NCBI RefSeq assembly: GCF_921293095.1
Contig: NC_060247.1
Coordinates: forward strand, 108,581,111-108,645,110
Source of the DNA: Ischnura elegans
Lineage: Eukaryota; Arthropoda; Insecta; Odonata; Coenagrionidae
Length of the DNA: 64,000 bases
Reading direction: 5' to 3'
Shown: positions 17,511-60,581 of the stretch, in pieces
Layout: every line of letters begins with the position of its first letter
How positions within the stretch are numbered: position 1 is the first letter of the stretch
Made by a program: the position numbers and the translations under genes
Notes under the pieces: generated by a model
The model's input: only the letters and a program-made list of their open reading frames with translations
What the model was told of the DNA's origin: nothing
Database searches by the model: none

Positions 17511-17548
17511 CTCGACCGGTTTCAACCTTCACAGGTCATTATCAAGAG
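17511..17548 (-). ncRNA. Hammerhead-ribozyme-like motif, site 1
   Basis: Minus strand: stem I CTC, core UUGAUAA, one extra U, a stem II hairpin closed by GACCT/AGGTT, GAAAC, CGG, then UC before the stem I partner GAG. Position 3 is U and position 8 is A, so the 3-8 pair is U-A instead of the usual C-G. The layout fits a minimal type I hammerhead; self-cleavage is not proven. Confidence 0.45.
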
Positions 17549-17680
17549 GTGAACAAATTGATTAATAGATAGGGCGGTATATATACTTATATATGGTCTC
17601 ACAAACATTGAACGGAGGGGTATGGCTGTGAGACCCTAATAAGTATATACATCGCCCGGTATATATCTCTATTAGTTCAC

Positions 17681-17717
17681 CTCTTGATATAAACTGTGAA
17701 GGTTGAAACCCGTGGAG
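17681..17717 (+). ncRNA. Hammerhead-like motif, site 1 inverted partner (decayed)
   Basis: The opposite arm of the palindrome carries the same motif on the plus strand. CTC and GAG of stem I are kept, but the core and stem II have small changes. Confidence 0.35.
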
Positions 17718-17779
17718 TTTTTTAATAAAAACTGTGTGGCATATAACACAGTTTACTTTTTTAATCTATCATGCCACGA

Positions 17780-18082
17780 CAGTGGCGCAGCGAGGGGGGG
17801 TTTTTGGGGGTAAAAAGAACCCCCCCAGAGCTCAGAGAAATTTTTAAGTTTAAACCATTTTACTTATTTGGATCATTATTACTTGTACAATAGTGTTAGG
17901 ATTAATCAAATATCCCTCTGAAAGCCGTAAAATTCGCCATTTAAACCTTCATTATCAAAATTTTTCTGGAGGAGGGACCCCGCAACTCCTGCTTACCCTG
18001 GTGTGTATGCAATACCCCCACACTCGTAAGTATTAGTTGCGCCTAAAACCCTCCATAGCCTTAATTCTTAGATGCGCCCCTG
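17780..18082 (+). mobile_element. Non-autonomous hAT-like element, family C, copy 1
   Basis: A 303-bp element starting CAGTGGCGCAGCG and ending GCGCCCCTG. It is flanked by TGCCACGA (17,772-17,779) and CGCCATGA (18,083-18,090), an 8-bp duplication with two transition differences. The copy at 38,964-39,268 shares the whole length, including AGAGCTCAGAGAAATTTTTAA and AATATCCCTC. The ends and the 8-bp duplication are hAT features. It has no transposase. Confidence 0.88.
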
Positions 18083-18644
18083 CGCCATGATGCTACAAAG
18101 TAACCTCGCAAACCATTGATTTGATATGGAATTGCGTTGTATCCTTAGTGGTAGGTAACCATATCAGCGACCTTTAAAATATTGGGGCAAATAACTGGTC
18201 AAACGGGCGGAGTAAGTTGAGGCACTGAGAGCCCCCGAGGCATACAGACGTTCCTTGCTGTGGACGACGCCCCATCCAGCACTTTCGTTCATCCAGTGTC
18301 TCATCTGGCCCACTTACGCCCATGACCAACGCCTACCCCGTCCCAAAAGTTGATACACTCCCTTGCCCCGTATTTTCTGGAACGCTCGCTTTCAATTCAA
18401 CCTGAAATATTTTTAGCACTCCACATATACTGTCATTTGCGATCGTTTGTTTTAAATTTACTGCAGAAATATTCATTTATCCTGCACCGTATTTATGAAC
18501 CTTGGGGTGATATTACTCTGATTTGTAAATTTGTTTTTGCCTTTATATTTCCGTACGCGCTGCATTCTTAGGATCATGGTAATCGTATGTGTTGCACTAT
18601 TATATATTTGCATTTATAAAATATCAGAATATTAGAAATTATTA

Positions 18645-18692
18645 TTTAAATTTTATAATTTTAATTTAAAAATTAAAATTATAAAATTTAAA
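18645..18692. repeat. Perfect 23-bp inverted repeat of A and T
   Basis: 18,645-18,667 is the exact reverse complement of 18,670-18,692, with 2 bases between. It could extrude as a cruciform. Chance is less unlikely in pure AT sequence, but a perfect 23-bp arm is still unusual. Confidence 0.9.
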
Positions 18693-18801
18693 TTTCAAAA
18701 ATATTTTAAAAAATAAATAATTTTAAATTCGAAATACTTCTTGATTGATATTCCTTCTTTGAGGTTCTGATGGTTTCTTTCAGTTATTAATAAATTCGCC
18801 C

Positions 18802-18843
18802 GGCCAGCGTTTTGCTTAATTTGAATCAAATCTTCATCAGGTC
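18802..18843 (-). ncRNA. Broken hammerhead-like motif, site 7
   Basis: The minus strand has a perfect CUGAUGA core (complement of 18,834-18,840) followed by a short ATTTG/CAAAT hairpin. The downstream GAAAC is altered, and stem I and the cleavage dinucleotide are absent. It looks like a decayed relative of the other sites. Confidence 0.25.
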
Positions 18844-20891: not shown

Positions 20892-21024
20892 CAGTGGCGT
20901 AGCCAGGATTTTGAAATAGGGGGTTTACCGGAGATTTCGGTGCCCTTCCGGGGTGTGTGGAAAACACCCCAGGGAAAAGGGGGGTTGTAACCCGGAAACC
21001 CTCCCCCTTGTAGCTACGCCACTG
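20892..21024. mobile_element. Short hAT-like MITE of 133 bp
   Basis: Ends are CAGTGGCGTAGCC and the inverted GTAGCTACGCCACTG. The interior is GC-rich and partly self-complementary. The 8-bp flanks (ATCTCTAG and ACCAGTAG) match at only 5 of 8, so the target duplication is weak. No coding capacity. Confidence 0.75.
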
Positions 21025-24000: not shown

Positions 24001-24032
24001 AGAACAGTGAAATAAAAAGTGATTGTTATTTC
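21025..24032. other. No confident gene; one open frame of 115 codons
   Basis: Mixed-composition DNA. The frame at 22,909-23,256 (plus) is less AT-rich than its surroundings and begins at an ATG, but the translation contains no domain I recognise. It could be a chance frame or a fragment of an unknown gene or element. Nothing else is visible. Confidence 0.5.
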
Positions 24033-25296: not shown

Positions 25297-25304
25297 GTTC
25301 CACA
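25297..25304. repeat. 8-bp target duplication, left copy (family A copy 1)
   Basis: GTTCCACA, identical to 25,584-25,591. Confidence 0.9.
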
Positions 25305-25583: not shown

Positions 25584-25591
25584 GTTCCACA

Positions 25592-26526
25592 CCTACGTCA
25601 AGGCGCATTCAGCATGTTTTTTAAAATAGCATTGGGTGAAGTTAAATATGAAAAAAGGAACAGACCATACAAGCGATCAAGATTAGAATAAAATGCGAAA
25701 TAATCCTACTTTAGAGGGAATCGAAGTGTACATCAATTAGAAATAGCAATGATAACTGAAAATTAAAACTTTGTCCACAGTATTTATTATTGTACTACGC
25801 GTTTCAGCGAATCACCTTCGCCATCATCACGTACAAGTGCATAGAAATATCAGTCGATACATATTTAAAATGCTTCAAAAAGGTCTATAATTTTGCTCGT
25901 TTCGAAAAAAAGGCATGTATGGACTCAAAAATCTATATTATTCTACCTTTCGTTGAAATACATCAAGCGTTATAAAAGGCAAAAAGAATAATATTTCGCT
26001 GCAATCACCCTCGTATTTCCAAGGTGTCAATACATTTCTATAATTCATGCGATCTTAAACAAATTTAAACCAATGCGACGAAATTTGGTGGTATTTACCT
26101 AACTACTTTCACAGCTCTTCTAAAAATCTTTCTCGGCAAAAATATCGTGATCGCGTCTGAAATGGTGACAACTCGATACTAAGAGGGTAGAGCAGTGAAT
26201 AAAAGATTGAGATAATATTCGCGTTTCTCCTTGAATGTGGCTTGAAAAACATTTTCAACTTTTAATTTGGCCCTTCAAAATTATAGTATGGCAGTCAATC
26301 ATACCGTGAAAGGCAACAGTGGATAAACATTGGTGTAAACTAATACGCTCTCACTAAACTTATATAGTCAATAGCGTAACACATCAATGTTATTCTCAAG
26401 TTACACATGAATACCTCCATCCCATATTTTAGGCTTAATATTTTACAGATGTACGATATCCATGTCGAGTGTCAAACAGATGTCGAAATAATTCCACAAA
26501 ATTACTCTATCTTGCACTCTCTTACT
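25592..26526. other. No gene seen
   Basis: AT-rich DNA without recognisable features. Confidence 0.55.
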
Positions 26527-38963: not shown

Positions 38964-39268
38964 CAGTGGCGCAGCGAGGGGGTAGTTTTGGGGGATAACC
39001 CCCCCCCCCCAGAGCTCAGAGAAATTTTTAATTTTAATCCATTTAACATAATTGGATTGATATTACTAATAGAATAGTGTAAGGATTAATAAAATATCCC
39101 TCAGAAAGCCGACTCACTCACCATTTTGAGCCATTTATCTAAAAATTCCGCAATTTATTAATCTCGCACCTCCCGCTTATCCTGGTGGGTATTCCACGCC
39201 CCCAGACGACCCCGGTATTATTTTCACCTAAATCCCCCCCTCAGCCTTAAATCGTAGCTGCGCCCCTG
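38964..39268 (+). mobile_element. Non-autonomous hAT-like element, family C, copy 2
   Basis: A 305-bp copy of the element at 17,780-18,082. The exact 8-bp duplication ATTGTCTT lies at 38,956-38,963 and 39,269-39,276, so both ends are defined. It sits between the arms of the inverted repeat pair. Confidence 0.93.
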
Positions 39269-39547
39269 ATTGTCTTCGCTTTTTGATGGTCATAGACTGC
39301 TACGGATTACCGCTCATTATAGCAAGTGGTTAATATTTGATCGTATTCTACAGGCATTCCTAAGAGTGGACAATGACTGTGAGGCACTATCAGCGCACCA
39401 TTCTCTTCGTAGTGCTTCGCAGTCACTGTCAACACACACAAGTCGAGCATAATAGTCGACTGTTACAGCAATTAACTTAGAAGTGAAAAAACCAGGCGAA
39501 ATGAAAATACACAACCTTGGTAACTTTTCACTGGAAAATTATTTATT

Positions 39548-39589
39548 GGTACGATGCGTTTCGACGCTGAGGCGTCATTATCAAGTACC
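39548..39589 (-). ncRNA. Hammerhead-ribozyme-like motif, site 2
   Basis: Minus strand: stem I GGTAC, core UUGAUAA, one extra U, stem II GACGC/GCGTC with a CTCA loop, GAAAC, GCA, then UC, followed by GTACC, the exact partner of stem I (5 bp). The 3-8 pair is U-A. This is the cleanest copy of the fold in the window. Confidence 0.5.
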
Positions 39590-39900
39590 AGGCTTTTACA
39601 GGGCCCAGAGATGAAGGACGGGAAAAATAGAGGTTGCGAGATGAAAGAGAAAAAGGAGGAGTGGGTAGGAGGTCGCCATTTTGGGGATGTTATCGCGGAC
39701 GATGAGTGTTCTCTGTGAGAAAGTGATCGGACAGAATTCAGTAAGGGCTTGTTATTGAATATCACGGGGGCTCTACGAGTCTACGTAAGTACGGAGATTG
39801 GGGTTGAAATGGCTCTTAAGGAAAGTGCTTTTCGATACATAGATGATGGGATACGCCGAAATTTTGATTTTAAATTCTCAGTCATTTTATTTATTCGTAC
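39590..39900 (-). repeat. Inverted repeat pair, right copy
   Basis: Reverse-complement partner of 38,272-38,560. On the minus strand it runs directly into the hammerhead-like motif at 39,548-39,589. Penelope-type elements often leave inverted copies of their terminal repeats, which would fit, but no reverse transcriptase lies between the arms. Confidence 0.8.
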
Positions 39901-41221: not shown

Positions 41222-41534
41222 ACGAATATTTCTCGGGTTTTCAGCCAGGTTAATGCTTTTATGGAAGCCGACGTTTCGGGAGACGACTTGTCTCCCATCC
41301 TCAAGGCTGTGTTACTTTATTGAAATCCAATTTCACAAAAGAATTTATGTGACACTTAATGCAAGAAAATGGCGTGAAAAAAAATTAATCATAACCATAT
41401 CAATGGTTTGAGCGTTTCAAGGATCCTCCGAGCTTGAGATTATCCTGAATTTGTCAAATAAGTGAAACGTATCGAACTCAAAAGTCGGCTTACATAAAAT
41501 CATTAACCTGGCAGAAAACCTGAGAAATATTCGT
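41222..41534. mobile_element. Inverted-repeat element with a hammerhead-like motif
   Basis: The left arm 41,222-41,272 is the near-perfect reverse complement of the right arm 41,484-41,534 (about 51 bp). The 211-bp centre has no coding capacity. The left arm leads into a hammerhead-like motif (41,266-41,308). The right-arm homology starts inside the 3' part of that motif, so the right arm lacks its core and stem II. Confidence 0.8.
41266..41308 (-). ncRNA. Hammerhead-ribozyme-like motif, site 3
   Basis: Minus strand: stem I AGCC, core UUGAGGA, one extra U, a 7-bp stem II GGGAGAC/GTCTCCC with a 5-nt loop, GAAAC, G, then UC, followed by GGCT, the stem I partner. Only core position 3 departs from the classical CUGANGA, giving a U-G 3-8 pair. 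Confidence 0.5.
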
Positions 41535-44095
41535 TACAAGTATTCACCAGGAAAAATTTAAATCGTAGTACCCAGTGCTTTGACCGAGCACCAGATATTT
41601 TCAGTGTAGCCACGTAAGATAAGTGTAGCTCATTCAATTTAATCGCGAATACTTACTATAAGTCATCACTCTGCGGTTTGAAGAAGCATTATGGTTTAAG
41701 ATAAATATAAGTCCCACGAAAATATTTTGCAATAAAATATCCTCATAAATCTATGCCACTTTAATATCTTAAACCTATATTCTTCTTCTAAAATCATGCC
41801 GAAAAAGACCGAAATATTGGAAAGCCTAAATTTTTCGCGAAGTAATTGTCAAACTCTTTCCCCAACGTAAACCCCACCCCTGAATTGCGCTTCCTACTAT
41901 TGTAAAATGTCAAACCCACTGTATTATAAACACCAGATGTTCCATTTTTCCTCTCAAGAAGATCCTCTCTCACAATTCCAACAATTAAGAGAAAAAGCCA
42001 TAGAAGAGCAAAGGAAAAGGAATAGATATGGTGAAAATATTCTAATGGTCGTATTTTTACCATCTAAGTAAACTCATAGGTCATGATAATGGCCCTCAAA
42101 AATATCAAAATGTTACCACTTGTAAATAAAAATTACAAAGATTTTTCTCACGAGAATTTTTCGCCTATACAGCTTGATTTCCTTTTGAATATGCTTGCCA
42201 CCCACTTCACCACCGCATGAGGGAATTCGTAGGAGGTTCAATTATCGTTACCGTTATCGTTACCCAAGGTCTATGCATCTCATCAATCCCCGCTTTTAAA
42301 ATTACACATTTCCATCTCCAAGCAGCCAAAGACCTTCAAGTTATTAAATTCTGAGATATCATGAGCAATACAGAAATTGATAAAAATTCCTCTGGCCATT
42401 TTCTCCACTCACCGTTGAATCATCGTTATGAATTCATCAACCATAGAAGGGAGTAAGAAGTCATTCTCACTCGTTTACTGAATACTCTCGTTTTTTAATT
42501 TTTCATGAAGATTGTATATTTAACAGATCATACATTCTTCTCATGATTTCCTCTTGAGGAATGTTTCCAGCAAAGCAAGCCCTTCATCTCTAACTAGTCG
42601 AGGTAAAAACAGGCGCTTATGAAGCCCATGGTCAATACGGTTATTGCATTACTTGGGCCAGAAACGATAAAACTCGTAGAAAAAAATAATGCCCCGAGAA
42701 GGCCAAGGAATAAACATTTTATTAAAAACGACTGAAATTATCACGAAAGTTGAAGGACAACAGCAATATTCATCATATACTCCAATATTTAAGCGCCCTA
42801 CGTAGTCCGCTAAACAGGTAAACCACGAGGTGATTTAATAAGTCAAGTTTTTTTTCCACACTATGACGTATACTCCAACCACTGCGAGGAGGGATTAATC
42901 CTCAGCGCTGAATTATGGGTGAAAGTTAGTGCTCCAAGTCCTGCTTAATGATGGGATTTGGAAAATAAATTTCAATTTAGCGATAAATTTCGGACCAAAA
43001 GTAAAACATGATTTATTTATTAACCAACTCAATAAAACTTAAGTGGCATTAATTGACCACAAAATTGCAATTTACGCCGCAAAAGGCTATCAAAAGCACA
43101 TTAAGAATATAAATTTTTACGAAGAGATTGGGATTAGAGTTTCCAAATTTAATCGATGAAAACACAGGCTGCTATTGCAATAATCGATTTATTCTTATGT
43201 CCTCAGTACGGTCCTCTGGTCCAGAGATGAGAACGAATCAAGGAAAAAATTTACCCCTCAGGTGATATATTAGTTAATTATCACCTCATTCTAAGAGAAA
43301 TTGGAGGCAAAATACATTCTCCACATTGAATTCAAATGTGCAAATTGCCGAAACTTGATCTTGAGCCAGTGTTTGACGTCGACAGGTGTCTCAGAATATA
43401 TTTATGCAAAGCAATGAAGATTCTTATAGCAATGCAGTTGGGCTAAAATATCCTAGCTGCAGCTTCGCTTCAGATGGAAATGTAACACATACATTCTATT
43501 CACAGAAACAAAAAATGGGACGACAACAACAAATAATAATCAATTAACACTCTTGACGGAAATAAAATTATATCACAACGTAATGGATTTCCAAGATTCC
43601 ATGAGTGGTTTATCACCTCAAGATAATGTGCTTAATTTCAAGTTGATTGAGTGAGTTATTAAGATGATTACCCTTGATCAATGGAACTCCTCCATCGATG
43701 CAAATATTATAAAATGGAGTACAAGTTGAAAAATTGTTACAATTACTACCTTTCCTTTACAGCTAGAAAATACTAATCCCTTACTTTGCACTTTAATTTA
43801 TTGTATAAAGAAGTTATTAGAATGGAGAGGACATTGAACAAACGAGAATTATTTTTAACTTATATTCAGCACACCAAAATATAAAAGGGAGAAGTTTTTC
43901 TGCAGCATAGCATGAAAAACACTCTAAGTATGAATTCTAATTGGTTTTTTATAAACTCACTGGCGATAAGTACCTAGTTTTTGTTTACGTTTAAATAGTG
44001 AAGTTAATCTAGTGATGTGGGGTCAAACTTCTAAAAACATAAAATATAGTGACAATGTTACAAAGTAGCCATTCTTTTTTACACCTAAACTTATT
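41535..44095. other. No gene seen
   Basis: 2.5 kb of AT-rich DNA. The 89-codon minus-strand frame at 41,794-42,063 has a hydrophobic start but no recognisable product. Confidence 0.5.
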
Positions 44096-44143: not shown

Positions 44144-44491
44144 GGTATTTTCTCCCTATCTCCAAGTACTTGCGTAAGAGTTTTTAATTTAGCTAATTTC
44201 TGGTTAATAATATGCCCACTGAGTCTAAGTTGGCGTTTTTATTTGGACTTTCATCGCAAAATGCACCCCAGATGTCAATGTTCATTGGTGTCAAATTTTA
44301 TACTATGCAATATTATTGGTATTTTCTCCCTATCTCCAAGTACTTGCGTAAGAGTTTTTAATTTAGCTAATTTCTGGTTTATAATATGCCCACTGAGTCT
44401 AAGTTGGCATTTTTATTTGGACTTTCATCGCAAAATGCACCCCAGATGTCAATGTTCATTGGAGTCAAATTTTATACTATGCAATATCACC
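44144..44491 (+). repeat. Tandem duplication with a 174-bp period
   Basis: Unit 1 is 44,144-44,317 and unit 2 is 44,318-44,491, differing at only a few positions. Homology to the dispersed copy at 46,731-46,903 begins further left, at about 44,096. The 156-codon open frame at 44,243-44,713 exists because the period is a multiple of three; I do not consider it a gene. Confidence 0.95.
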
Positions 44492-45136: not shown

Positions 45137-45144
45137 GATATATT

Positions 45145-46730: not shown

Positions 46731-46903
46731 GGCAGGCATCTCAAATGGCTGTGGAAGTAGATCATATTGAGAGATTGAGATATTTTCTCCCTATCTCCAA
46801 ATACTTGAGTAAGATTTTTTAATTTAGCTAATTCCTGGTTTATAATATGCCTACTGAGTCTAAGTTGGCGTTTGTATTTGGACTTTCATCGCAAAAGACA
46901 CCC
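46731..46903 (+). repeat. Third, dispersed copy of the 174-bp repeat
   Basis: Matches 44,096-44,275 in order: GGCATCTCAAA, TATTTTCTCCCTATCTCCAA, TTTAATTTAGCTAATT, CTGAGTCTAAGTTGGCG. It is single here and more diverged than the tandem pair, so the repeat is dispersed and the tandem copy arose locally. Confidence 0.9.
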
Positions 46904-49900
46904 TCCTATGAATCTTTAATGGTTTCATAAATAACTCAGAGTCATTCAAACAGATGATATCAATGGAAATTAATATAAATGTCATTTAACGCTTATTAGA
47001 ATATAAATGTCATAACTCAAGTTTCTGCCGTCTCTATTACAAAACTTCTCGAACAATCAAACTAATTGAATGTGATACGCACATTTAATTCAAACATAAA
47101 AAACGCTTTCAATATTTCTTTGGTTAGTTGAATAAAGTATGACCTTTTGCTCAGCTGTTTGCTATTTTGCTTTTTTTTTGGTGGTGGACAAAATTAAAGG
47201 AAAATCGAGAGTAAATCTTTGGCCTTCATTCTGATCTCAAATGTGCTCTTCGCAGGGACGAGGGGGTGAAATCGAACACACTTGTGCACATTTATTCACG
47301 AAACTGGGAAATATTATTCATTGCAATCCCTTGGTATAATTTATTTATATTTTGGCGTCCTGCGACTTTCACCACAGAGTAAATCCAACGCCTAGTCAAT
47401 CGTAGACGAGACTAAACCCTCAGCTTCGCATTTTCCACAGTCGACTGATTATGACGGAGTTTTAAATTCTTCTTCTACCGGGGAACAGCCATAAATCTGC
47501 CAAAAGTCACTTAGCACGGGATTCTCCACAGGCATGAGGAGGATATTAGCTACTGCTGCGTTCCTATAAAATTTCCTAATTTTCGCATTGCCACAGGTCG
47601 TGGGCCCGCATTATGAAAACAAGCGAGTCTCAGGTTTCAAGTTTCCGTAGTTACCACTTCATTATGCGCTCAAATTTCCGATTGGGAAAGGGAGGAGTTT
47701 CAGAAATATCCATTACTTGGGATGAATGCATAAACTCTGAACGGACCGCTTTGTTTCTTATCTTTCGAAATACATCTCTGACAAAACTTCATCCAGCCCA
47801 TTTTCCCATGAAGTTGCAACCGTCTGCCGAAGACCAATTGAAACCACGGAAAACAATTCAAGGGATGAGGAAAAAATTTTAAATCCTCAATGATGTTGAC
47901 ATCTAGGGTGACATTTACCATGAAAAATCATTTGTCTTGGGAAAGGGATTCTGAATCTTCCAATTTACGGCCAGGTATACCACCATAAACATAATAAGGT
48001 AAATTTTAGATGGCTATTTCATCCTGGCCAGGCCAAAGAGTTTTTCATGGTAATTTGCACACTTGGTGTAACTAATTTTACACCCGTGCGCGTGACTACG
48101 TACCTCAGAGGTAATCTCAATCATTTCAATAATTTTCGCAAAATTTTACGGGAATGCATGAAATTGTTAGTCTTGAAGTATATATTTAGCGCGGTTTATG
48201 TACAATTATTGTCAATTTAAGTCTTGTCAACCGTTCAAATATTTGTGTAAACTTATTTAAAAGTTAAAAACTCTTACATAAAAACTTGTATTACTTACTT
48301 CTAATATCAATGAAACATTGCCCTCCGCAGGTAGCCTCAATCAGTGCATGCATATAGGCTGCTTAAAAGTTCCTTTGCTATAATTATTGATGAGAAAATA
48401 TAGATATGGTAGGCAAGACTTAAATATTTCAGCCTGTATTGAAATAGCAAGTATCTAAGCAACTATCGAAAGTTAATACTCAATTCCCTTGAAATGAAGG
48501 AAGTAATGGAATCAGTCGTCCATATCATAATTCATTTAAGGATGCATGATTTAGCCTATATTCAATATGTCACCGGAAACGTCTCATAAACCTATCACGG
48601 CTAAGTCGTAAAGGCAAAACAATGTCACTGAATCATCATAATTCATTGTTCCTCCTTTAATTCGTGGCAATCCTGTCATTCGACGGTGACTGAGTGATAG
48701 GAAATGTATTTCACTTACTTGAAGGACTCGCGAACGATGCTCCAATTATTGAGAAACCTTGCATCCCATTCATGAGAGGCACTCAGGCAAAAGAGACGGA
48801 GAGCATTGAAAGGAAATCAAGGCCTGGGACTAACCCTTCAATGCTCACCGTTTATGCAATCTTTAGAAAAGGGCAATAAAGTAGTTCGAGTTTCTCAACC
48901 ACTGCTTCACGTCTTAATTAAGCCAAGAATTTCCATGGAAATCGTCGCAGGATTGAACAAAAAGATTTATCCCCCGACGTAAAAGTCATAATTTAACCAT
49001 TAGAGCATAAAGATTGAAATATTGACATTTTCATTGTTATCATAACTGAAAATACTGATATTCTCCCGCAAATGTGGCAAATTTGGCTGTCACCCAATTT
49101 TCCAAAACAGTTTCGCTAAGGGTATGCAAATTTTATCCTATTTCAAAGGCACATTAATTAGTTTTCCCTATCACTTCTTAACTTAGATGCCTATCTTCCT
49201 CCATTAGTGGGTCTAATATGCTCCACAGAGCCTTGTTAATTGACATCTTATCTATTAAATCTTTCCACTTAAATTCTTTAAGCCAACGATGTTTCGGCCA
49301 TAAAATTGGAAAACGCCGGAAGTTACTTAACACGAGCCTACTCCAATAAAATCAAGCACCAGTCTTGTCGTTTCACTTTCATTGTTAATCCAGAGCAATG
49401 GGAAACTTGAAATGAATTCAGAGGATCACGCTCAAGTTTTGCAAGAGATTTGATCGCTCGTAATATTATTTTGTGAATATCAGTCTTCCAATATCTTTTA
49501 ATGATGATCCTTACAGCAGATATGTATCTTCAAGATCATTAATTAAACTAAGCGGCTCCTTAATACCACTTACCTTATTTTCTCTCATTAATTATTCTCT
49601 CAGAACCATATTGTGTCATATTGCCCTCGATTAATTAAGGTTACAATAGCCAATAAGAAATAACACATATCACCCTAAATATTAATATCACATATTAATA
49701 TTTAAACCCTAAATATTAATATCACACATTAATATAACATAACACATATCACACTAAATATTTATTTCCTACTTATGTTCCAGTATTTTGATTATTTATA
49801 TGTCTACTGTGACATTAATGACAAAAAGAAGGAAAATACCTTAACAAAATCGCATGTATTAAAAAAATAAAGAAATAAAGCCAATTTTGCAAACCTTGCA

Positions 49901-50470
49901 AAAATTCTTTCGATAAAATAAATCAATTTCGTGGATAAAAATATTTTTATTTTCTTCTATAAAATTAATTACAACGAAAAAGGCATTTAATAAAGAAAAA
50001 ATGGATTTATGCAAAGCCTTTTTCACCGATTGTGAGAAACAGTCCTTTTATTATCATAAGTATCATTTCTTTTACTTGCCAGGCTTCCACAAATCTATCC
50101 TTTCGGTTAAAACCGTGCCTGTATCTCTATTTTAGACAAGAATTTGGAAATTAATTTTTTGCAAAAGCAACTCCAATTTCGATCAAAAAAATATTCAATA
50201 TTTACGCTGAAAATTTTATAAACTTGAAATCGGGGAAGACTAACTTTTTATTCGAGGAAGGTTACAATTCAGAACTTTACAACACCAAAGCGTAAATAAC
50301 TCAAATATTCATAAACTAATGTTAAAAGAGGATTGTAGGGTGGAGCTACCAGAGAGGAATAATCTCACAAAATGATAGCTGAAAATTTAAAAAATCCTGA
50401 AAGATTTATGCAGAAATCCTGAGAATATGTATCATAATTCTTCGTTAAAACTTTCGCGGGTGCTCGTCAT
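46904..50470. other. No gene seen
   Basis: 3.6 kb of AT-rich DNA, including a small tandem repeat at 49,673-49,742. Open frames are under 90 codons with no recognisable product. Confidence 0.55.
49673..49742 (+). repeat. Two tandem units of about 35 bp
   Basis: CCCTAAATATTAATATCACA is repeated at about 49,673 and 49,708 within AT-rich sequence. Confidence 0.8.
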
Positions 50471-50520
50471 TATGATTAAAAACATTTGGGCTATGTCGCC
50501 GCGTCAATGCTTGAGGTGGC

Positions 50521-50560
50521 CCCAACGTTTCCCGACCGATGCTGGTCGCTTTTTCAAGGG
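50521..50560 (-). ncRNA. Hammerhead-ribozyme-like motif, site 4 (left flank)
   Basis: Minus strand: stem I CCC, core UUGAAAA, stem II CGACC/GGTCG, GAAAC, then GUU, followed by GGG pairing with stem I. The 3-8 pair is U-A. The base next to stem II is a G-G mismatch, so this copy is partly decayed. Confidence 0.4.
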
Positions 50561-50786
50561 ATTATGGAGAGATGGGAATTTAGGATCTTTTATATAGGTG
50601 TCTGTGTCAGGAGGTGGAGGGAGGGGAGCCGGAGGTTGGGGGAGTGGGTTGCTGCTTGTTTTTTTCTCATTACGGGTTGCCAAGTACGGCTAATTTTAAT
50701 GCCGGTGTCTCTGTTGAAATTATTCTTATCTTAGATGAACTTTCCATTCTATTCGGGTTTCTTCACCGCGTTTGTTGTATTTTGAA

Positions 50787-50827
50787 GACAACAGTTTCGC
50801 CGAAATTACACTCGGCGTCTTCAGGTC
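50787..50827 (-). ncRNA. Hammerhead-ribozyme-like motif, site 5 (3' flank of the Penelope-like ORF)
   Basis: Minus strand, about 60 bases after the reverse transcriptase ORF ends: stem I GAC, a classical core CUGAAGA, stem II GCCGA/TCGGC, GAAAC, UG, then UU, followed by GTC pairing with stem I. This is the only complete site whose core matches CUGANGA exactly. One extra C lies between the core and stem II unless G12 is taken into the stem. Confidence 0.5.
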
Positions 50828-50883
50828 GAAGGTAAAATTTTTGGAAAAATTTTCCGCCTTTTATAGGCATAAAATTTTCCGCC

Positions 50884-52887
50884 TTATATAGGCGGCGGCG
50901 GCTGCTGATCCGCTGCTGCTCTCTCATTGGCCGGTTGTCCATCTCTCATTGTTGGTGGTCGGAGAATCCTCTTCCATGCAGTATGCAAGCTGTAGCCTTG
51001 ATCTCGGTTGAAATTTGCGGGCGTTTTCGCTATCTCAATAGCCTCTCTGATCAAGCGAGGGAAGTATTTATTCTCTTTAGCTATTATCCTGGCGTCTTCA
51101 AAGAGGATGTTATGCCCAGGTGCACTCCAAGCATGCTCAGATATGGCTGAGAGTTGGTGCTGCTTGTTTTTCGTAGCCCTCCGATGTTCCTGCAATCGGA
51201 CTTTCAATGATCTGCAGGTCTCGCCAATATAATATTTGCCACATGAACAAGGCACTCGATATATACCCTCATAAAAGTCCACTGGGAGTTTGTCCTTCGC
51301 TCCGGGTAGCATGTCTGATATCTTTGCCACGCAATTGAAACGTGTAATTACGTTTTGTTTTCTGAGCATTCTGGCAATCTTTTCTGATATGCCCGCCACA
51401 AAGGGAATTGTGGCGTATGCTTCCGGCTCCGGCCGGCTCTCTTCCTCAGAGGTCCTTTTTGGGGCTGCGTCTTTGTTCTCCTGCTCCACAAATCTTCTAT
51501 TCAACATGCTACTGCTGTAGCCATTCCTTACCAGCACTTCAATGAGATGCTTCTTCTCCGCAGATAGCGACTCGGTGTCTGAGATGGCATAGGCACGATG
51601 TATTAATGTTGCCACCAAGGAGATTTTTTGCAATGGGTGGTGGTGCGAAGAAGCGTTCAGATAGCGGTCAGTATGAGTTTTCTTTCTGTGAACGGCATGT
51701 CCTAGGAGCCCATTTCTTTTCCTTTTTACCAAAACATCCAGGAAGGGAATTTGACCATCATGTTCCATTTCCATTGTGAATTTGATGGCGTGGTGCTGCG
51801 AGTTGAGATGCTGTAGGAATTTCTGCAATTCTTCGACGCCATGGGGCCAAATGATGAATGTGTCGTCAACGTATCTCAGCCAGAGCGATGGTTTCTTTTC
51901 GTACGACGCGATGGCCTTTTCTTCGAAATCCTCCATGAAAAGGTTCGCTACAACTGGAGATAGTGGAGACCCCATAGCTGCCCCCTCTGTTTGTTCGTAA
52001 AATTCCCCATTCCATAAGAAATAAGAGTTTCTTAGACAATATTCCACTAATTTGGGAAAGTCATTCGGGATGCCTTCAGAGATGAGTCGTCGGATGATAT
52101 CCACTGATTCTTGGATAGGGACGTTTGTAAACAGAGACACCACATCAAAGCTGGCTATGATGTCTTCGTTTGTGACGGAGACCGTATTAAGAATATCAAT
52201 AAAATGGGATGAGTTCTTCACATGCGATGAAGTCCGTCCAACGTATTCCTGGAGTGATTGGGCTAGATATTTGGATAGCCAGTAAGTTGGGGCGTCGATT
52301 TGACTCACAATCGGCCTCAGAGGTACGTTTTCTTTGTGGATTTTTGGTAGGCCGTATAGTCTCGGTGGTTTCGCAGCCGAAGGGAGGAGGCCTCGTTGAT
52401 ATTCTCTTGGAATGGATGAACTCTTGATGATGGCCCTGGTATTTCGTTCCAATTTGCTTGTTGGATCGGCCTTCATCTTTCTGTAGATTTGCTCCTGGAG
52501 AAGAGATAATATTTTCTTTTCGTAGTCTTCCTTTCGCATCAAAACAGTAGCGTTCCCTTTATCTGCGGGTAATATGAGAATACTACCATTGTCCTGGAGC
52601 TTCCTCAACGCTCGTCTCTCTGCAGCTGTTATATTTGGTCTCGGTGGTCTTGATTTGCGGAGGATACTCCCAACGTCTTCCCTTATCTCATCTGCAATCC
52701 CTTTTGGCAGCTTCCGGATGGCGGATTCAACTCCGGTGATGATTTTTTCTTTCGGAATTGTCTTAGGAGCAATGGCGAAGTTGAAACCTTTCGCTAGGAT
52801 GCTTTCTGTGGCACAATCCAAGGTTTCGTCTGTAAGGTTGAATACGGAACGGCCCTTTACAGGATCATGAACTGGATGTTGCCTGCT
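50884..52887 (-). CDS. Penelope-like reverse transcriptase with GIY-YIG endonuclease
   Basis: One uninterrupted frame. Counting from the TTG at 52,821 it gives 645 residues; the frame is open 22 codons further, to 52,887, after a TGA at 52,888-52,890. No in-frame ATG precedes methionine 95, so the true start was lost, lies in another frame, or is not ATG. Domains: an N-terminal region, LYGLPKIHK (155-163), motif A with D226 (SFDVVSLFTNVP), motif B AAMGSPLSPVVANLF (281-295), catalytic YVDD (317-320), a thumb with IPFLDVLV (358-365), a linker, then GIY-YIG endonuclease with GIY (519-521), YIG (531-533), R542 and E593. C525, C527, C536 and H546 fit the small zinc-binding insert of Penelope-clade endonucleases. 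The tail ends in a proline run. In the family this protein nicks the target and copies the element RNA. All visible catalytic residues are intact, so the copy is young. Confidence 0.93.
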   Translation of the reverse strand, partial: SRQHPVHDPVKGRSVFNLTDETLDCATESILAKGFNFAIAPKTIPKEKIITGVESAIRKLPKGIADEIREDVGSILRKSRPPRPNITAAERRALRKLQDNGSILILPADKGNATVLMRKEDYEKKILSLLQEQIYRKMKADPTSKLERNTRAIIKSSSIPREYQRGLLPSAAKPPRLYGLPKIHKENVPLRPIVSQIDAPTYWLSKYLAQSLQEYVGRTSSHVKNSSHFIDILNTVSVTNEDIIASFDVVSLFTNVPIQESVDIIRRLISEGIPNDFPKLVEYCLRNSYFLWNGEFYEQTEGAAMGSPLSPVVANLFMEDFEEKAIASYEKKPSLWLRYVDDTFIIWPHGVEELQKFLQHLNSQHHAIKFTMEMEHDGQIPFLDVLVKRKRNGLLGHAVHRKKTHTDRYLNASSHHHPLQKISLVATLIHRAYAISDTESLSAEKKHLIEVLVRNGYSSSMLNRRFVEQENKDAAPKRTSEEESRPEPEAYATIPFVAGISEKIARMLRKQNVITRFNCVAKISDMLPGAKDKLPVDFYEGIYRVPCSCGKYYIGETCRSLKVRLQEHRRATKNKQHQLSAISEHAWSAPGHNILFEDARIIAKENKYFPRLIREAIEIAKTPANFNRDQGYSLHTAWKRILRPPTMRDGQPANERAAADQQPPPPI

Positions 52888-53029
52888 TCAATAGTATCCC
52901 AGTCGCATTGACAAAATAACCTATGAGTCATCCCGCATCACTCAAGCCACGGTACGGGAAACGCAGATTAAGAAATTTGAAAAACTGAGAAGAAACCCGA
53001 ATAGAATGGGAAGTTCATCTAACCAACGC

Positions 53030-53195
53030 CGCGAAAATCTTCGAACCTACATTATTCTTATCTTCTTTGGATATTTCAATGGCTTCTCTGACGAGTCTCT
53101 GTTTAAAACCTTTAACTTTGGCGAGGATTTTGACTTCCTTGAGGTCGATATGTGGCCAAGCGCTGCGTGTTCGGCTACCGCGGACTTTGTTGGTT
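53030..53195 (-). pseudogene. Fragment of a second Penelope-like endonuclease
   Basis: The minus strand encodes a short stretch (HIDLKEVKILAKVKGFKQRLVREAIEISKED) that aligns with residues 570-600 of the neighbouring ORF, including the REAIEI motif with the conserved Glu, but is clearly diverged. It is therefore the end of the endonuclease domain from another Penelope-like family, in antisense to the flank that contains it. It suggests template switching or nested insertion. Confidence 0.75.
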
Positions 53196-53210
53196 GGTTG
53201 TTGAAAAAGC

Positions 53211-53237
53211 GACCAGCATCGGTCGGGAAACGTTGGG
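53211..53237 (+). ncRNA. Hammerhead-like motif, site 4 inverted partner (5' strand of stem I missing)
   Basis: Plus-strand copy of site 4 within the right inverted flank, identical from the core through GAAACGTTGGGG. The bases before the core no longer pair with GGG, because other sequence joins there. Confidence 0.35.
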
Positions 53238-53287
53238 GCCACCCAAAGCATTGACGCGGCGACATAGCCCAAAAGTTTTTAATCATA

Positions 53288-53717
53288 AATATGTATCATG
53301 TTTTAGTAATGCAATAATAAATTCATAATTTTGACAAGGCATTCCAATAAGTCATATTCTTCACTATTGTCCCTGATTCACGTACCTCAAAGACTACCGT
53401 GAATCGTGCCTATTTATTAAGGGTTTCGAAGAATTCTCATCCTAAAATAAATGATATAAAAATGGTTTCAGGAACTAAATAATAATTTAATTATCGTAAG
53501 AATATATATTTATTCCCACACCACCGAAAACAGCACATTTTGGCCTTTTATTTTTATTTTATTTTAAAGAAATATAACCACATACAGCATATACTTGCCG
53601 TTTTATAGTGGCCAGGTAACAATACATAAATTAGAGGACGAAGACGCAATATAACATGTAGAAAACAATAATTACATTTACAAAAACAAAAGGACAACAA
53701 GAAACTGCAGTGACAGA
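53288..53717. other. No gene seen
   Basis: AT-rich DNA. The part after about 53,540 may be the 3' end of the LINE fragment that follows. Confidence 0.5.
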
Positions 53718-54190: not shown

Positions 54191-54239
54191 GTTTAAACAA
54201 ATTTAAGATTATATGTGTGCAAACGACCATGCCCTGGGA

Positions 54240-54325
54240 TAGAGGCAACATAATCATGCCGGACTCGAACCCGCGACCTCTTTATTGGCAGGCGAGGACT
54301 TAACCCGCCGACACTGAGACCTACA
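54240..54325 (-). mobile_element. tRNA-like SINE head
   Basis: The minus strand has an A-box-like GTCGGCGGGTTAAG stretch and a strong B box, GGTTCGAGTCC (complement of 54,261-54,271). Acceptor stem pairing is poor, so it is not a tRNA gene. It directly precedes the LINE fragment in the same orientation, so the two may be one SINE with a LINE-derived tail. Confidence 0.55.
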
Positions 54326-56646: not shown

Positions 56647-56654
56647 AGTATGTT
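56647..56654. repeat. 8-bp target duplication, left copy (SINE)
   Basis: AGTATGTT, identical to 56,958-56,965. Confidence 0.8.
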
Positions 56655-56957
56655 GGCGATCGGGTTGGTGTGTGGCTAGAGTGTTGGCTTCCCACCCCAC
56701 GGGCTCGGGTTCAAATCCTGGCGGTGGCAGAGAATTTTCAGAGACTGCTCGATCGTGCTTGAATGATATGTGGAGGGCATTTCAAGCGCAACACTCCGTC
56801 CGTCGGATGGGACGTTAAGCCGTGGTACCCTTGGCGCCTTTCGTTAAGAGCAGGCTAATTCCGACGCCGGGTTTCTCTCCACCCTTCCTTACCTACCCTT
56901 CCCTCATGGCGCAAATGACGTAAGCTGTCGGGCGCCTCCTCCAAATACCATACCATC
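56655..56957 (+). mobile_element. tRNA-derived SINE with target duplication
   Basis: A SINE of about 300 bp. The first 75 bases are tRNA-related, with an A-box-like GTGTGTGGCTAGAGTG stretch and a perfect-looking B box, GGTTCAAATCC, at 56,708-56,718. The body includes GATGGGACGTTAAGCCGTGG and a short ATACCATACCAT tail. AGTATGTT is duplicated exactly on both sides. Its movement would rely on a LINE; which one is unknown. Confidence 0.88.
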
Positions 56958-56965
56958 AGTATGTT

Positions 56966-59320
56966 AACACGAGAACTAATATTATGCTAACACGAGGATA
57001 TTTCGTAATTTCGCTAACTTCCATAATGCGTTGGTTTCACACGCAACGGTGTACTTCCAAGATCTCGCCATCCTGTATATGCGTCCGATCATATGGGCCT
57101 TTCTCCTAATGTAATAGCGCCTAATGTAACCCGCTCACTCTCGCCAGTCACGAGGGCATATACGTATGTACTTTCCCTCCCTTGCCCTCGCCCACGGTCG
57201 CCGGCGAATAGACTGTCTCACACGCATCCGCGATATACCCATATGCATTATTTAGCAGTTTTCCCACCTCGGGCCGTTGCGTCAGGAAACTGCGGAGCTG
57301 GCTTCGAGGAGGAAATGAAATCCGAAGGAATGGTACTGCTTGAGAAATGGTGGCAGCACCTTCGCGTCCAAAAACGTTGCACCAAAGACTCCCTCCCTCA
57401 TTAGCGAATAATAGATGAAATATTGCATGGGGAATGAGACAGATAGACTGATCTATACTATTAGCTTCTCTTATCTATGATTTCACTCTCAACTTCGATA
57501 CTGTTTTTTTTGTGAAACCTCATTGGGACACTATATGAAGACCAGTTAAAATATGGTATCCCATCTGCGGGAAGGAGGAAAACCGTAAGTATTAGGTAAG
57601 TTCGGTTGCTGGTTCATTCCCCCTTATTAGGTATTTTCTTGATATATACTCATCAAATATGAGGAAAAGCTATCCAAAGACAAAATAAATAAATTTTAAA
57701 AATCAGTTTTTACGAGCCTAATCGAATCAATGCCAGAAAAGCAAATATTATCACCAATGCTCGATGAACACTGAATTCGAAGTTGGCCGCAGAACTTAAT
57801 CCAAAAAAATTAACATTAGAAGTAACCAAGTAAAATAGTAATTTTATCAACATAAGGCTAACACAGCACATAATTTTCATAATATTATGTCATTTTCAAG
57901 CTACCAAGGCACTCGTCAAATTACCATTTGTAATATTTTTCATGCTTATTTTAAGCGTTTGTTGAAATATATTAAATTATTTTCATCGTATGTTCATGTT
58001 ACCACCAGGCCAATAGCCTACTTGTTATTTCATAATTTTTATAGTTGAGACAAGAGCAGATGTTGATAGGTGACAACTCTATGAATCATAATATTTTCAA
58101 GAAGGTAGCATAACATTTAAAATAGTCACGTTAAAAAAATACGACTGGTACAAACGGTAGGGATGTGTCCTCTAACTTCTTTCAGACTCGGGAAGAATTT
58201 CCCCGAAAGCTGCCCAGTGGAGAGCCTTGATCCACTGCGACCTCAAGGTTAGTTTTTTTTCTCGGTCACCATGCACGACCTCAAAGTGTGAAATCTCTCG
58301 ACGCAATAATTGTGCGAGAAAAATCATATACTATCAGTTTCATTTCTGACCAGGGAAAATGTGAAAATTTCACACCATTTCCTGGAACAAAAGTTGGACT
58401 TTTCCTGCTTTTTTCTTTCCTCAAATCATCGTGGCCCACTCAATTTCAGTACTAACCATAAATTTCACAAAACCTTTGGTTGGTAAATTATGATTAAGGT
58501 ATGTAACATTCAAAATGTAGACATTAGCAGCTATTATAAAGTATTATACACACATATTCTCGCTGTCCTATGGCAAGACTGATGTGTCAATTTTGGCTAA
58601 CTTTGGTAAACATTCCTCGCTTTACTAGTTGTTCAACTTGGATGCAATCAATTATAATATATCGTATAAATATCTAATGCATAGAGCAGTCCCATAACTA
58701 AGTATGCACGTAAAAGTATCGTACACTACAGGAAGTTACCATAAATTCACTGACCCTGATGCGAACGCTACATAATTGTGATATAGGATTATTAAAATAT
58801 ACCACTTGAAAACAGAAAATAACATGGATAATGTGCTTCTTTCCTCGTAGAATCCATTATAAGTGACTACAGACGAAGCATAAATCCACCATTCACCGCA
58901 AAGTATTCTAATGAGAGTATAACCTTTAAGGCCACCGCATGAAGAGCTATAAAGCACTGTATTAATAAGATAATCCATTTTTCACCTAAAGCTTACAATT
59001 AGTGAATTTTACCTCATTGAAATTTACGTCATTGTCGACCGAAACCTATTTGAAAAATCAGACTGTAGTAGCTTATTTCCGTTTACAGTAGTGCTTACTA
59101 AATTAAAGATAGCGATAATGTTGACGACATTTAATCTATTCAGCATCGAATTGTCTTTGAAAAATCTTACAATTATGATAGCAATCCCAACAGGTTAGCC
59201 TTAAATATGTTCAAAATCCTGTAAAAGAAATCCTTGCTCCAAAGGTAGCAACAGACGGGAACTCGGTAAGATAAATGCAGCCAAATAGTTGTATTAGTCC
59301 ATGAAAAAAATTGAAAATAA
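56966..59320. other. No gene seen
   Basis: 57,060-57,400 is GC- and CpG-richer and carries a 103-codon plus-strand frame without a recognisable product. The remainder is AT-rich and empty. Confidence 0.5.
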
Positions 59321-59323
59321 TGA

Positions 59324-59760
59324 CGGTTGGTTTCCGGGTTAATTCCACGTCGACTCATTTTGTCGGACGACAGCTACGGGCGCGTTACAGCTCTTATCTT
59401 ACTGTCGGGAGCTGGAACGCGCCCAGTAGCAGATACAGAAAAAAAAACTCGCGGGGGGCGTAAAAGATATCTTGAGTTACCTTTACTTTTATCCTAATAA
59501 AAAATAATTAAGTCACATGCAGAGTTTAAGAAAACTTTACTTAAATTTACTACACATAATTACAAGACAATGTCATCTTATGATAAAAAAAAGTTATAAT
59601 TGTGGTTCTGCAATGTTTGGAAATACGGTGAGGCCCGCAAGGGGGGGGGGGGCGCGCGCCCCCTGCGCCCCCCTTCTGTATCTGTATCCGCCACTGAATG
59701 CGCCCGTAACTGTTGTCCGTCGAAAATGAGTAGACGCAGAATTAACCCGGAAACCAATAA
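59324..59760. mobile_element. Inverted-repeat MITE with a nested hAT-like insertion
   Basis: The left arm (about 59,324-59,385) and right arm (about 59,697-59,760) are reverse complements sharing TTTCCGGGTTAATTC, ACTCATTTT and ACGGGCGC. A second element (59,424-59,696) lies inside. Without it, the MITE is about 160 bp. Outer limits and target duplication are uncertain. Confidence 0.75.
59424..59696 (+). mobile_element. Nested hAT-like non-autonomous element
   Basis: A 273-bp element with ends CAGTAGCAGATACAG and the inverted CTGTATCCGCCACTG. Flanking 8-bp AACGCGCC (59,416-59,423) and AATGCGCC (59,697-59,704) differ by one transition. It contains a 12-G run and CpG-rich sequence near its 3' end. 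No transposase. Confidence 0.88.
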
Positions 59761-59765
59761 TCAAT

Positions 59766-60440
59766 TTAACCACCGCAGAGCCTCCGTAATAATAGAACAT
59801 AATTGTCGCATTTCACACTAAGTAAGAGTTACATATAACAATATATAGTAATTTTGAATGACGCTAAATAGGAATAATTTTCTAACATCCTAGTATGGCC
59901 CAGGGTGTAGTGGAAAAGTGGTCCGACGAAACGTTAACGAATCTGACTCGATGAAAAAGATGATTATAAAAAAGGCTAGCGCTAACCGCCCGAAAAACCT
60001 AAAATCTTCCTTAGTTCTCTGGGATTTTGGAGGAGGGAACAGTAGGGAATATCCCCCACCTCTATCCAGCACTGAGCCACCCTAGCTACTCGGCCAGAAC
60101 CAGAGTCGACGGCACGCTCGAAAAAACGATGTAAAATTCGGGGTTGCAAGTTGGAGCAGGATTTTATTTAGATTCACAATATAGAAGCTTCATGGAATTA
60201 TCATGGAAATAGCGGCATTTAAACTATAAATGACTACAAACTTTATCTTCAAATCGGGGAATACGTAACAAACCCATCAGAAGACAGAGCAGGTCCTGCA
60301 TTAGCAACTATAAGAAAGCCTTCATCAAAACAAAAAACAGAAAATCCGAAGATTCAAGCGTGATAGAGTTAAATTTTCCATGTTGAAATAAATAATCGGA
60401 ATTTTCCATGATTATAAAATGTATTAATTATATGACATAA
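59766..60440. other. No gene seen
   Basis: AT-rich DNA without recognisable features. Confidence 0.55.
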
Positions 60441-60486
60441 GAAGTGAAACACTTTGCACTTTCCACATAAAAATTTATTAATCTAC

Positions 60487-60525
60487 AGTCGACATGTTTC
60501 GCCGCATTGCAGCATTATCAAGACT
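60487..60525 (-). ncRNA. Hammerhead-ribozyme-like motif, site 6
   Basis: Minus strand: stem I AGTC, core UUGAUAA, one extra U, stem II GCTGC/GCGGC with an AAT loop, GAAAC, AUG, then UC, followed by GACT, the stem I partner. The 3-8 pair is U-A. Confidence 0.48.
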
Positions 60526-60542
60526 TGAGTCTTGAGAAGATG

Positions 60543-60581
60543 AGTCTTGATAATGCTTCAGTGCAGTGAAACATGTCGACT
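60543..60581 (+). ncRNA. Hammerhead-like motif, site 6 inverted partner
   Basis: Plus-strand copy in the right arm. Stem I (AGTC/GACT), the core, GAAAC and the UC dinucleotide are kept; stem II is weaker. Confidence 0.42.

What the first reader, a model, noticed from the sequence alone, without database searches (positions are those of the whole stretch)
17511..60581. A recurring hammerhead-ribozyme-like fold at eight sites in five unrelated repeats, with covarying pairs
Seen directly: sites at 17,511-17,548(-), 17,681-17,717(+), 39,548-39,589(-), 41,266-41,308(-), 50,521-50,560(-), 50,787-50,827(-), 60,487-60,525(-) and 60,543-60,581(+) share stem I, YUGANRA, a stem II hairpin, GAAAC, 1-4 bases and U-C/U-U before the stem I partner. 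Stem I is kept while its sequence changes: CTC/GAG, GGTAC/GTACC, AGCC/GGCT, CCC/GGG, GAC/GTC, AGTC/GACT. Stem II also differs each time. Core positions 3 and 8, which pair in the hammerhead tertiary structure, appear as C-G, U-A or U-G, never mismatched, in the undecayed sites. Known: hammerhead motifs occur in Penelope-like terminal repeats. Inference: these sites descend from or mimic them. Caveats: U at position 3 and one extra base before stem II are not classical.
Basis: partly seen in the sequence, partly recalled or inferred. Interest (0 to 1): 0.8.

Follow-up and report, generated by a model that had tools for sequence, protein, structure and literature searches.

The report
Penelope retroelement ribozymes at transcript starts
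The eight hairpin motifs are real hammerhead-ribozyme copies of a kind already known from Penelope-type jumping genes, and the copies in this genome suggest that the ribozyme lies at the very start of the jumping gene's RNA and was uncut in the RNAs that were copied back into DNA.

Summary
Six of eight sites pass a strict hammerhead descriptor (0.08 expected); two are decayed copies. They are not unrelated repeats but ends (pLTR/leader) of several Penelope-like element (PLE) families: head-to-head pairs (84 of 84 adjacent close pairs, five families); in the three families measured (B, D, F) a tail on one arm only (32 of 36 pairs) and target duplications (26 of 36; controls about 1% or less); a PLE reverse-transcriptase ORF in the window. 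Minimal hammerheads in PLEs are known, and the U3-A8 swap was reported in 2011. Stems covary across 12 families (97.9% of cells paired, shuffles 64.9%), and the stem III segment is a perfect palindrome in 9 of 12, as expected of ribozymes that work as dimers. Not found in the papers seen: 5' ends of inserted copies pile up at or within 10 nt of the ribozyme's 5' edge in three families and 27-31 nt upstream in a fourth, with TATA boxes 32-38 nt upstream in 5 of 8 families; 0 of 129 arms start at the predicted cut. The ribozyme therefore seems to sit at the transcription start and to be uncut in inserted templates. Cleavage was not testable. A new member of a known kind with one useful new lead.

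The parts
17511..17548 (-). Family A hammerhead, left arm of a head-to-head insert (U3-A8; stem III ACCGGU)
   Evidence: inverted partner 81.7% alike
17681..17717 (+). Family A hammerhead, right arm, decayed (one core base lost)
39547..39590 (-). Family B hammerhead (U3-A8), single arm here; 79 exact copies of the intact form genome-wide
41266..41308 (-). Family C hammerhead (U3-G8); 121 exact copies genome-wide
41480..41556 (+). Inverted partner arm of family C, truncated inside the hammerhead (no core)
   Evidence: 83.8% match from query position 33
50521..50560 (-). Family D hammerhead (U3-A8), G.G at base of stem II; TATATAAAA 36 nt upstream; tail to about 50,437
50437..50473 (-). Family D tail region: probable ORF start MTSTRESFNEE, and the site where tailed arms end
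53201..53288 (+). Inverted family D arm (97% complementary to 50,470-50,557), short end without tail
50787..50827 (-). Family E hammerhead (C3-G8), about 57 nt after the end of the PLE frame; TATAAA 38 nt upstream
50884..52887 (-). PLE open frame, 667 aa: reverse transcriptase (184-372) and a weak GIY-YIG-type match (541-596)
52980..53022 (+). Inverted family E arm, short end; family E insert looks nested in the family D insert
   Evidence: by eye
53040..53190 (-). Remnant of a PLE C-terminal coding region, probably of the family D PLE
   Evidence: read by eye; similar coding in D loci
60487..60525 (-). Family F hammerhead, left arm (U3-A8; stem III ACAUGU); 266 exact copies of the intact form genome-wide
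60543..60581 (+). Family F hammerhead, right arm
25790..25836 (-). Ninth, decayed hammerhead-like site (G3-G8, stem I 6 bp), not in the finding

Best explanation
The sites are minimal type I hammerhead motifs in the 5' leader of several families of Penelope-like retroelements (PLEs), seen here mostly as short, dead, head-to-head inserts. Shown for families B, D and F: most inserts measured are two copies of the same leader (hammerhead and first codons), joined at their 5' ends, one with and one without a tail that lies inside the start of the ORF, flanked by target duplications. Families A and C share the head-to-head layout; their tails and duplications were not measured. Inferred: the PLE enzyme starts reverse transcription inside the first codons and copies towards the RNA 5' end; because that end is the transcription start, and the hammerhead lies at or just after it, a common product is a cDNA of about 90-135 nt ending at the 5' edge of the hammerhead, like the strong-stop cDNA of retroviruses. 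Inferred: both strands of the target are primed, which gives the head-to-head pair. Inferred from palindromic stem III segments: the ribozyme acts only when two copies meet, for example the leader copy and the copy in the downstream pLTR of one RNA, and is otherwise silent, so that templates stay whole. How the element profits from cleavage is my guess (about 0.4): cutting tandem or read-through transcripts between units when two pLTRs, or PLE protein, are present.
For: Motif far above chance. Compensating changes across 12 families: 97.9% of cells paired against 64.9% in shuffles and 35 doubly changed cells against 10.3, 0 of 500 shuffles as high; two weaker measures: 7 pairs with a double change against 4.8 (22 of 500 as high) and 16 further pair types against 13.9 (85 of 500). 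84 of 84 adjacent pairs closer than 3 kb are divergent, among 281 places listed for A, B, C, D and F. Tail on exactly one arm in 32 of 36 measured pairs (D 14 of 14, B 11 of 14, F 7 of 8) and a shared flank of 8 nt or more in 26 of 36 (D 13, B 7, F 6), against 0.8%, 1.2% and 0 of 56 in re-paired controls. In the anole PLE PAc the tail is the sequence between two RT start sites, and the enzyme cuts and extends both target strands (PMC11167929, main text section read). Coding relatives of the window PLE protein in 10 D locus ids besides the window copy (9 places, 39-50% identity) and in 1 of 30 B loci. 5' ends of arms relative to the first hammerhead base: F 16 of 22 at -1..+1, B 23 of 52 at -3..+1, D 16 of 42 at -10..-2, C 9 of 13 at -31..-27. 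TATAWA 32-38 nt upstream in A, D, E, F and G, 5 of 8 families (B has TATTTA at -31, I has CATAAA at -30, C none), background 2.45% per random point. G before the 5' end in 8 of 12 F arms and 8 of 16 B arms that start at position 0, where most long copies have T (read; binomial P 0.0005 and 0.006; noticed after the fact). 0 of 129 arms begin at the predicted cleavage-product start, 1 within 3 nt. Stem III segment perfectly self-complementary in 9 of 12 families and 53 of 64 hits.
Against: No RNA data: the transcription start is read from DNA copies. Loci were picked because they contain the hammerhead, so truncations inside it are under-sampled; this weakens the absence of cleaved templates more than the 5' pile-up. 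Family A arms in the window run past the TATA box, and 5' ends were not measured for A. One family G arm (L014, right) and family C have no TATA; four families (H, J, K, and 25,790) were not in that count, and 25,790 shows none by eye. No PLE coding was found in the fetched A (30), C (8, short) or F (14, most short) loci. The window's own F pair (L091) shows no tail and no clear duplication. The GIY-YIG match is below its curated cut-off. Rfam hammerhead models match neither the window nor 10 fetched loci, even at E 10. L084 has two tailed arms and a tandem copy.
Confidence: 0.8

Rival explanations
1. Small non-autonomous retrozymes or satellite repeats spread as hammerhead-cut RNA circles, as described for animal retrozymes.
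For: Type I hammerheads, short repeats, many copies.
Against: Animal retrozymes are described as repeats of about 150-300 bp in tandem (PMC7761336 and PMC7229834, passages); here 84 of 84 adjacent close pairs are inverted, with tails and target duplications. Insert ends do not lie at the cut.
Confidence: 0.05
2. Foldback or MITE-type DNA transposons whose terminal inverted repeats happen to look like hammerheads.
For: Inverted arms with target duplications.
Against: The two ends differ by a fixed tail, arms are cut at different 5' points, longer D inserts hold PLE coding sequence.
Confidence: 0.02
3. The head-to-head structure comes from self-priming on an antisense PLE transcript (proposal of Arkhipova and colleagues, 2013), not from priming on both target strands; the pile-up at the hammerhead edge then marks a palindrome where the cDNA folds back, not a transcription start.
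For: Palindromes at the inverted junction and bidirectional promoter motifs were reported in rotifer PLEs (PMC3846280, passages). Family B stem I contains the palindrome GTAC, and some joints here are nearly palindromic.
Against: Arms of one pair often end at different points and many joints carry filler; one end has the tail and the other not, and both edges flank a target duplication; the purified anole enzyme extends both target strands.
Confidence: 0.25
4. The fold is kept as a protein-binding or RT-positioning structure in the leader, and cleavage no longer matters.
For: Extra base before stem II in 64 of 64 hits, no helix III, no footprint of cleaved templates; the anole hammerhead did not cleave without protein and its mutants still inserted.
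Against: U4, G5, A6, A9 and GAAA are invariant across the 12 families (these bases were part of the search pattern, so this is largely circular), and stem III is palindromic in 9 of 12, more than a scaffold would need.
Confidence: 0.3
5. Chance hairpins next to common words.
For: None after the controls.
Against: 0.08 expected, 6 found; 7 against 0.17 in flanks of fetched loci.
Confidence: 0.01

Closest known systems
Minimal hammerheads of Penelope-like elements (Cervera and de la Pena 2014; Lunse, Weinberg and Breaker 2017)
   Same: Type I layout, stem III reduced to a few bases, found in PLE pLTRs, thousands of dispersed copies, said to act as dimers. The 2014 and 2017 papers are not held; they are known here from passages in PMC6155905, PMC7761336, PMC7229834 and PMC6466107 and from recall.
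   Different: Here U3-A8 or U3-G8 in 7 of 12 families, one extra base before stem II in every hit, and a position at the inferred transcription start. Whether the two primary papers list these features could not be checked.
Poseidon PLE of Anolis carolinensis (PAc)
   Same: Hammerhead at the pLTR-ORF junction; RT starts inside the ORF; tail lies between two RT start sites; cleavage not needed for insertion in vitro (PMC11167929, main text section read).
   Different: In PAc the ORF begins at stem II of the hammerhead and C3-G8 is kept; here the likely start codons of B, D, E and F lie about 35-56 nt after the hammerhead (F measured, the others counted by eye). A mapped transcription start is not given for PAc in the section read.
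Penelope elements of Adineta vaga (Arkhipova and others 2013)
   Same: Head-to-head inverted pLTRs, 31-bp tail on one of them, 8-10 bp target duplications, TATA and initiator-like motifs in the pLTR, first 12-22 codons in the pLTR (PMC3846280, passages).
   Different: The word hammerhead does not occur there; the inverted arrangement was explained by self-priming on an antisense template.
U3-A8 hammerhead variants (Perreault and others 2011)
   Same: C3-G8 replaced by U3-A8 in several natural hammerheads (PMC3088659, section 8 read).
   Different: There listed among rare core variants; here it is the commonest state by family, 5 of 12.
Animal retrozymes
   Same: Type I hammerheads in small repeats.
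   Different: Tandem repeats and canonical loop-loop contacts (passages); here inverted pairs and no helix III.

Membership tests
Hammerhead ribozyme, type I | Core CUGANGA...GAAA...UH at a three-way junction | tested here: met
   YUGANRA, GAAAC and UH in 6 of 8 sites; position 3 is U in 7 of 12 families, with A or G at 8
Hammerhead ribozyme, type I | Stems I and II kept by compensating changes | tested here: met
   rows were chosen for pairing, so partly circular
Hammerhead ribozyme, type I | Helix III with A15.1-U16.1 | tested here: inconclusive
   A15.1 and U16.1 present, no room for an intramolecular helix; palindromic in 9 of 12, fit for a dimer
Hammerhead ribozyme, type I | Stem II directly after A9 | tested here: not met
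   one extra base in 64 of 64 hits
Hammerhead ribozyme, type I | Match to a curated Rfam hammerhead model | tested here: not met
   no hit in the window at gathering score or at E 10, nor in 10 fetched loci at E 10; an own-genome search with RF00008 found none, but its control genomes rang in none either
Hammerhead ribozyme, type I | Self-cleavage after UH | not testable with these tools
   needs transcripts
Minimal PLE hammerhead | Located in the pLTR of a PLE | tested here: met
   B, D, E, F; for A and C only the head-to-head layout was tested
Minimal PLE hammerhead | Dimer-competent stem III | tested here: met
   self-complementary in 9 of 12 families; dimer activity itself untested
Penelope-like element | Reverse transcriptase | tested here: met
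   PF00078, E 2.3e-12, in the window ORF
Penelope-like element | GIY-YIG endonuclease | tested here: inconclusive
   TIGR01453 (group I intron endonuclease) at 541-596, E 5e-4, 20 bits against a cut-off of 56
Penelope-like element | Inverted pLTRs, one-sided tail, target duplication | tested here: met
Animal retrozyme | Tandem repeats of about 150-300 bp | tested here: not met
   84 of 84 adjacent close pairs inverted; one tandem case, L084

The most novel reading that the evidence does not exclude
In PLEs of this genome the hammerhead is the literal 5' end of the transcript, and the abundant inverted leader inserts are strong-stop products of reverse transcription primed on both target strands from uncut, capped RNAs. 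The dimer-only ribozyme would then be a switch that spares single-leader RNAs and cuts RNAs that carry two pLTRs.
Probability: 0.4. Interest if true: 0.65.

Novelty: new member of a known kind. Interest (0 to 1): 0.45.

Why it matters
One review calls the activity and role of the PLE hammerheads still a mystery (PMC7761336, passages). If their place at the transcription start and the lack of cut templates hold, the question becomes directly testable: which RNAs does the ribozyme cut, and does cutting block or allow insertion? The inserts could also give a map of PLE transcription starts and RT start sites in other genomes without RNA data. And Rfam's hammerhead models miss the copies tested here, so annotation pipelines may overlook them or mistake the foldback inserts for microRNA hairpins.

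Tried and rejected
Rejected: chance; MITE-type foldbacks; retrozymes. Rfam scans gave no hammerhead, only a tRNA above threshold and sub-threshold models, many of them microRNA families matching the palindromes. A MAFFT alignment of the eight sites was useless because GAAA-like words mislead it; I used a composite alignment with loop II and the variable stem III bases left out. Relatives of the PLE protein in viral contigs: none confirmed. The 3-8 pair by itself is only suggestive at family level: C-G 4, U-A 5, U-G 2, mismatch 1; all four C3 families have G8, chance about 0.07 by my own arithmetic. Fold energies are not outstanding for every site (11 sequences, z from -0.7 to -3.3). In one search I entered family I as ACT; one search gives ACTT; it is not self-complementary either way. 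The pattern (130 matches) is impure: many of the printed matches are antisense pieces of family F leaders rather than hammerhead halves, so I do not use its count. In one search the TATA probability was computed for 5 of 9 families; one search holds 8 families, so I do not quote it. No cross-species test of the transcription-start claim was possible.
Full report
What was checked. A strict descriptor finds six of them and no other site; simulated windows hold 0.08 on average. Sites 17,681(+) and 50,521(-) are recognisable but damaged. A scan with positions 3 and 8 left open over 356,170 held bases (window and fetched loci, partly overlapping) gives 64 hits after removal of identical contexts: 3-8 is U-A in 45, U-G in 11, C-G in 5, C-A in 2 and G-G in 1, and one extra base stands before stem II in 64 of 64. 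Most of these hits are copies of few families, so they are not independent.

Covariation. Of 96 cells, 97.9% form standard pairs against 64.9% in shuffles; 35 cells are changed on both sides against 10.3; no shuffle of 500 reaches either value. Two cruder measures are less clear: pairs with a double change 7 against 4.8 (22 of 500 as high), further pair types 16 against 13.9 (85 of 500). Sliding the partner by one to three columns drops pairing to 22-47%. All rows had been chosen for pairing, which inflates the percentage. A comparison less open to that bias is B against F, whose kinship rests on the ORF start (MDFHKVKAESIE; MDLHKVSASSIQ read by eye): by eye, three of four stem I pairs and two of five stem II pairs differ on both sides and none is broken. 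The stem III segment from A15.1 to U16.1 is perfectly self-complementary in 9 of 12 families (ACCGGU, ACGCGU, ACAUGU, ACGU) and in 53 of 64 hits; by composition one expects 5% for a two-base centre and 19% for none. This was not in the finding. It fits the double-hammerhead mode described for PLE hammerheads (PMC6466107, section 1.3.1 read).

What the repeats are. Searches with each site's surroundings return 48-63 places per family for A, B, C, D and F, lower bounds. Among these 281 places, all 84 neighbouring pairs closer than 3 kb are divergent, hammerhead 5' ends facing each other. A tandem case exists outside that count (L084). The outer ends are of two kinds in D, B and F: a short one and one longer by a tail of about 33-42 nt. 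Of 36 pairs measured (D 14, B 14, F 8), 32 have exactly one tail, 2 are unclear, 1 has two (L084) and 1 has none (L091, the window's own F pair); 26 share 8 or more bases at the target, against 0.8%, 1.2% and 0 of 56 in re-paired controls. Tails and duplications of A and C were not measured. The tails contain an ATG and 11-13 codons. In the anole PLE the tail is the sequence between two RT start sites inside the ORF, and the enzyme extends both target strands (PMC11167929, main text section read). Inverted pLTRs with a one-sided tail and 8-10 bp duplications were described in rotifer Penelope elements (PMC3846280, passages), and a curation guide names inverted pLTRs and 3' extensions as PLE peculiarities (PMC8969392, passages). 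D inserts encode relatives of the window PLE protein at 39-50% identity (10 locus ids, 9 places, besides the window copy), and one of 30 B loci does weakly; none was found in the A, C and F loci held. The window protein has a reverse transcriptase and a sub-threshold GIY-YIG-type match. The window PLE (family E, with its own hammerhead at 50,787-50,827) appears nested in a family D insert whose arms lie at 50,437-50,560 and 53,201-53,288.

Where the hammerhead sits. For 129 arms (D 42, B 52, F 22, C 13; identical contexts counted once) I measured where the copy begins. In F, 16 of 22 begin within one base of the first hammerhead base; in B, 23 of 52 within -3 to +1; in D, 16 of 42 at -10 to -2; in C, 9 of 13 at -31 to -27, at TCAGTGTGA, which looks like an initiator (recalled motif). 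Most of the others run further upstream, and some are shorter. A few of the shortest matches may be separate fragments. Upstream sequences show TATAWA 32-38 nt before the hammerhead in A, D, E, F and G, 5 of 8 families (B has TATTTA at -31, I has CATAAA at -30, C none), against 2.45% of random points. Family A arms in the window run past their TATA box. Centres of several F pairs hold repeats of the first bases AGTCTTG, as if the enzyme ran off an RNA end and restarted. A G that most longer copies lack (they have T) precedes the start in 8 of 12 F arms and 8 of 16 B arms that start at position 0, as a copied cap might leave; this was noticed after the fact. I read these together as the transcription start. 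Genome-wide, the order CUGANNA, 6-26 nt, GAAAC, 42-72 nt, ATGGAYYTNCAYAARGT occurs 577 times with no match to the reversed pattern; the matched letters were not shown, so stems could not be checked. Exact copies of the intact F, B and C hammerheads number 266, 79 and 121.

Is the ribozyme used? Product starts after cleavage would lie 35-39 nt into the hammerhead. None of 129 arms begins there; one begins 3 nt before (L073) and one 6 nt before (L002). Because loci were chosen for containing the hammerhead, the informative arms are the 18 that begin more than one base inside it or downstream; these are spread out. So the templates that were inserted seem to have been uncut, in line with the anole work, where cleavage needed protein and was not needed for insertion. 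I think it most likely that cleavage happens only when two copies pair through stem III, as in RNAs with two pLTRs; this is inference.

Novelty. Hammerheads in PLE pLTRs, missing stem III, dimers, U3-A8, inverted pLTRs and tails are all in print (the two primary papers on PLE hammerheads could not be read). I found no statement that the hammerhead marks the transcription start or that leader inserts are strong-stop products: two papers hold Penelope, hammerhead and transcription start site together, on plant retrozymes and viroids (listing only), one holds Penelope and strong-stop, on fungal Copia (listing only), and one holds Penelope, transcription start and pLTR (listing only). These searches cover open-licence papers only.

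Noticed in passing
window 25790-25836 (-): A ninth, decayed hammerhead-like site with a 6-bp stem I, G at position 3 and a palindromic stem III; similar in stem II to family G of locus L014.
   Followed up: partly
window 50437-53288: A family E PLE apparently nested in a family D PLE insert; both have an inverted partner arm at the upstream end.
   Followed up: partly
window 60442-60626 and loci L005, L070, L088, L099: Foldback PLE inserts match microRNA models below threshold (e.g. MIR8007, E 1e-10); they could pass for microRNA hairpins in annotation.
   Followed up: no
window 5095-6996 (-): Broken reverse transcriptase frames of another retroelement (RVT_1, E 1.3e-36 in 5439-6527).
   Followed up: no
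window 44144-44487 and 46779-46948: A 170-bp repeat, two copies in tandem (98%) and a third about 2.5 kb away (76%), within or near an open frame of 189 codons.
   Followed up: no
window 17780-17942 and 38964-39126: A 163-bp repeat (82%) just beside the family A site and about 400 bp from the family B site.
   Followed up: no
L093, L105, L112, L069: Filler at the centre of head-to-head inserts contains repeats of the RNA's first bases, a possible trace of template jumping.
   Followed up: partly
L014 1863-2174: A family G insert pair (head-to-head) sits inside or next to a family F-like element with C3, so PLE families may insert into each other.
   Followed up: no
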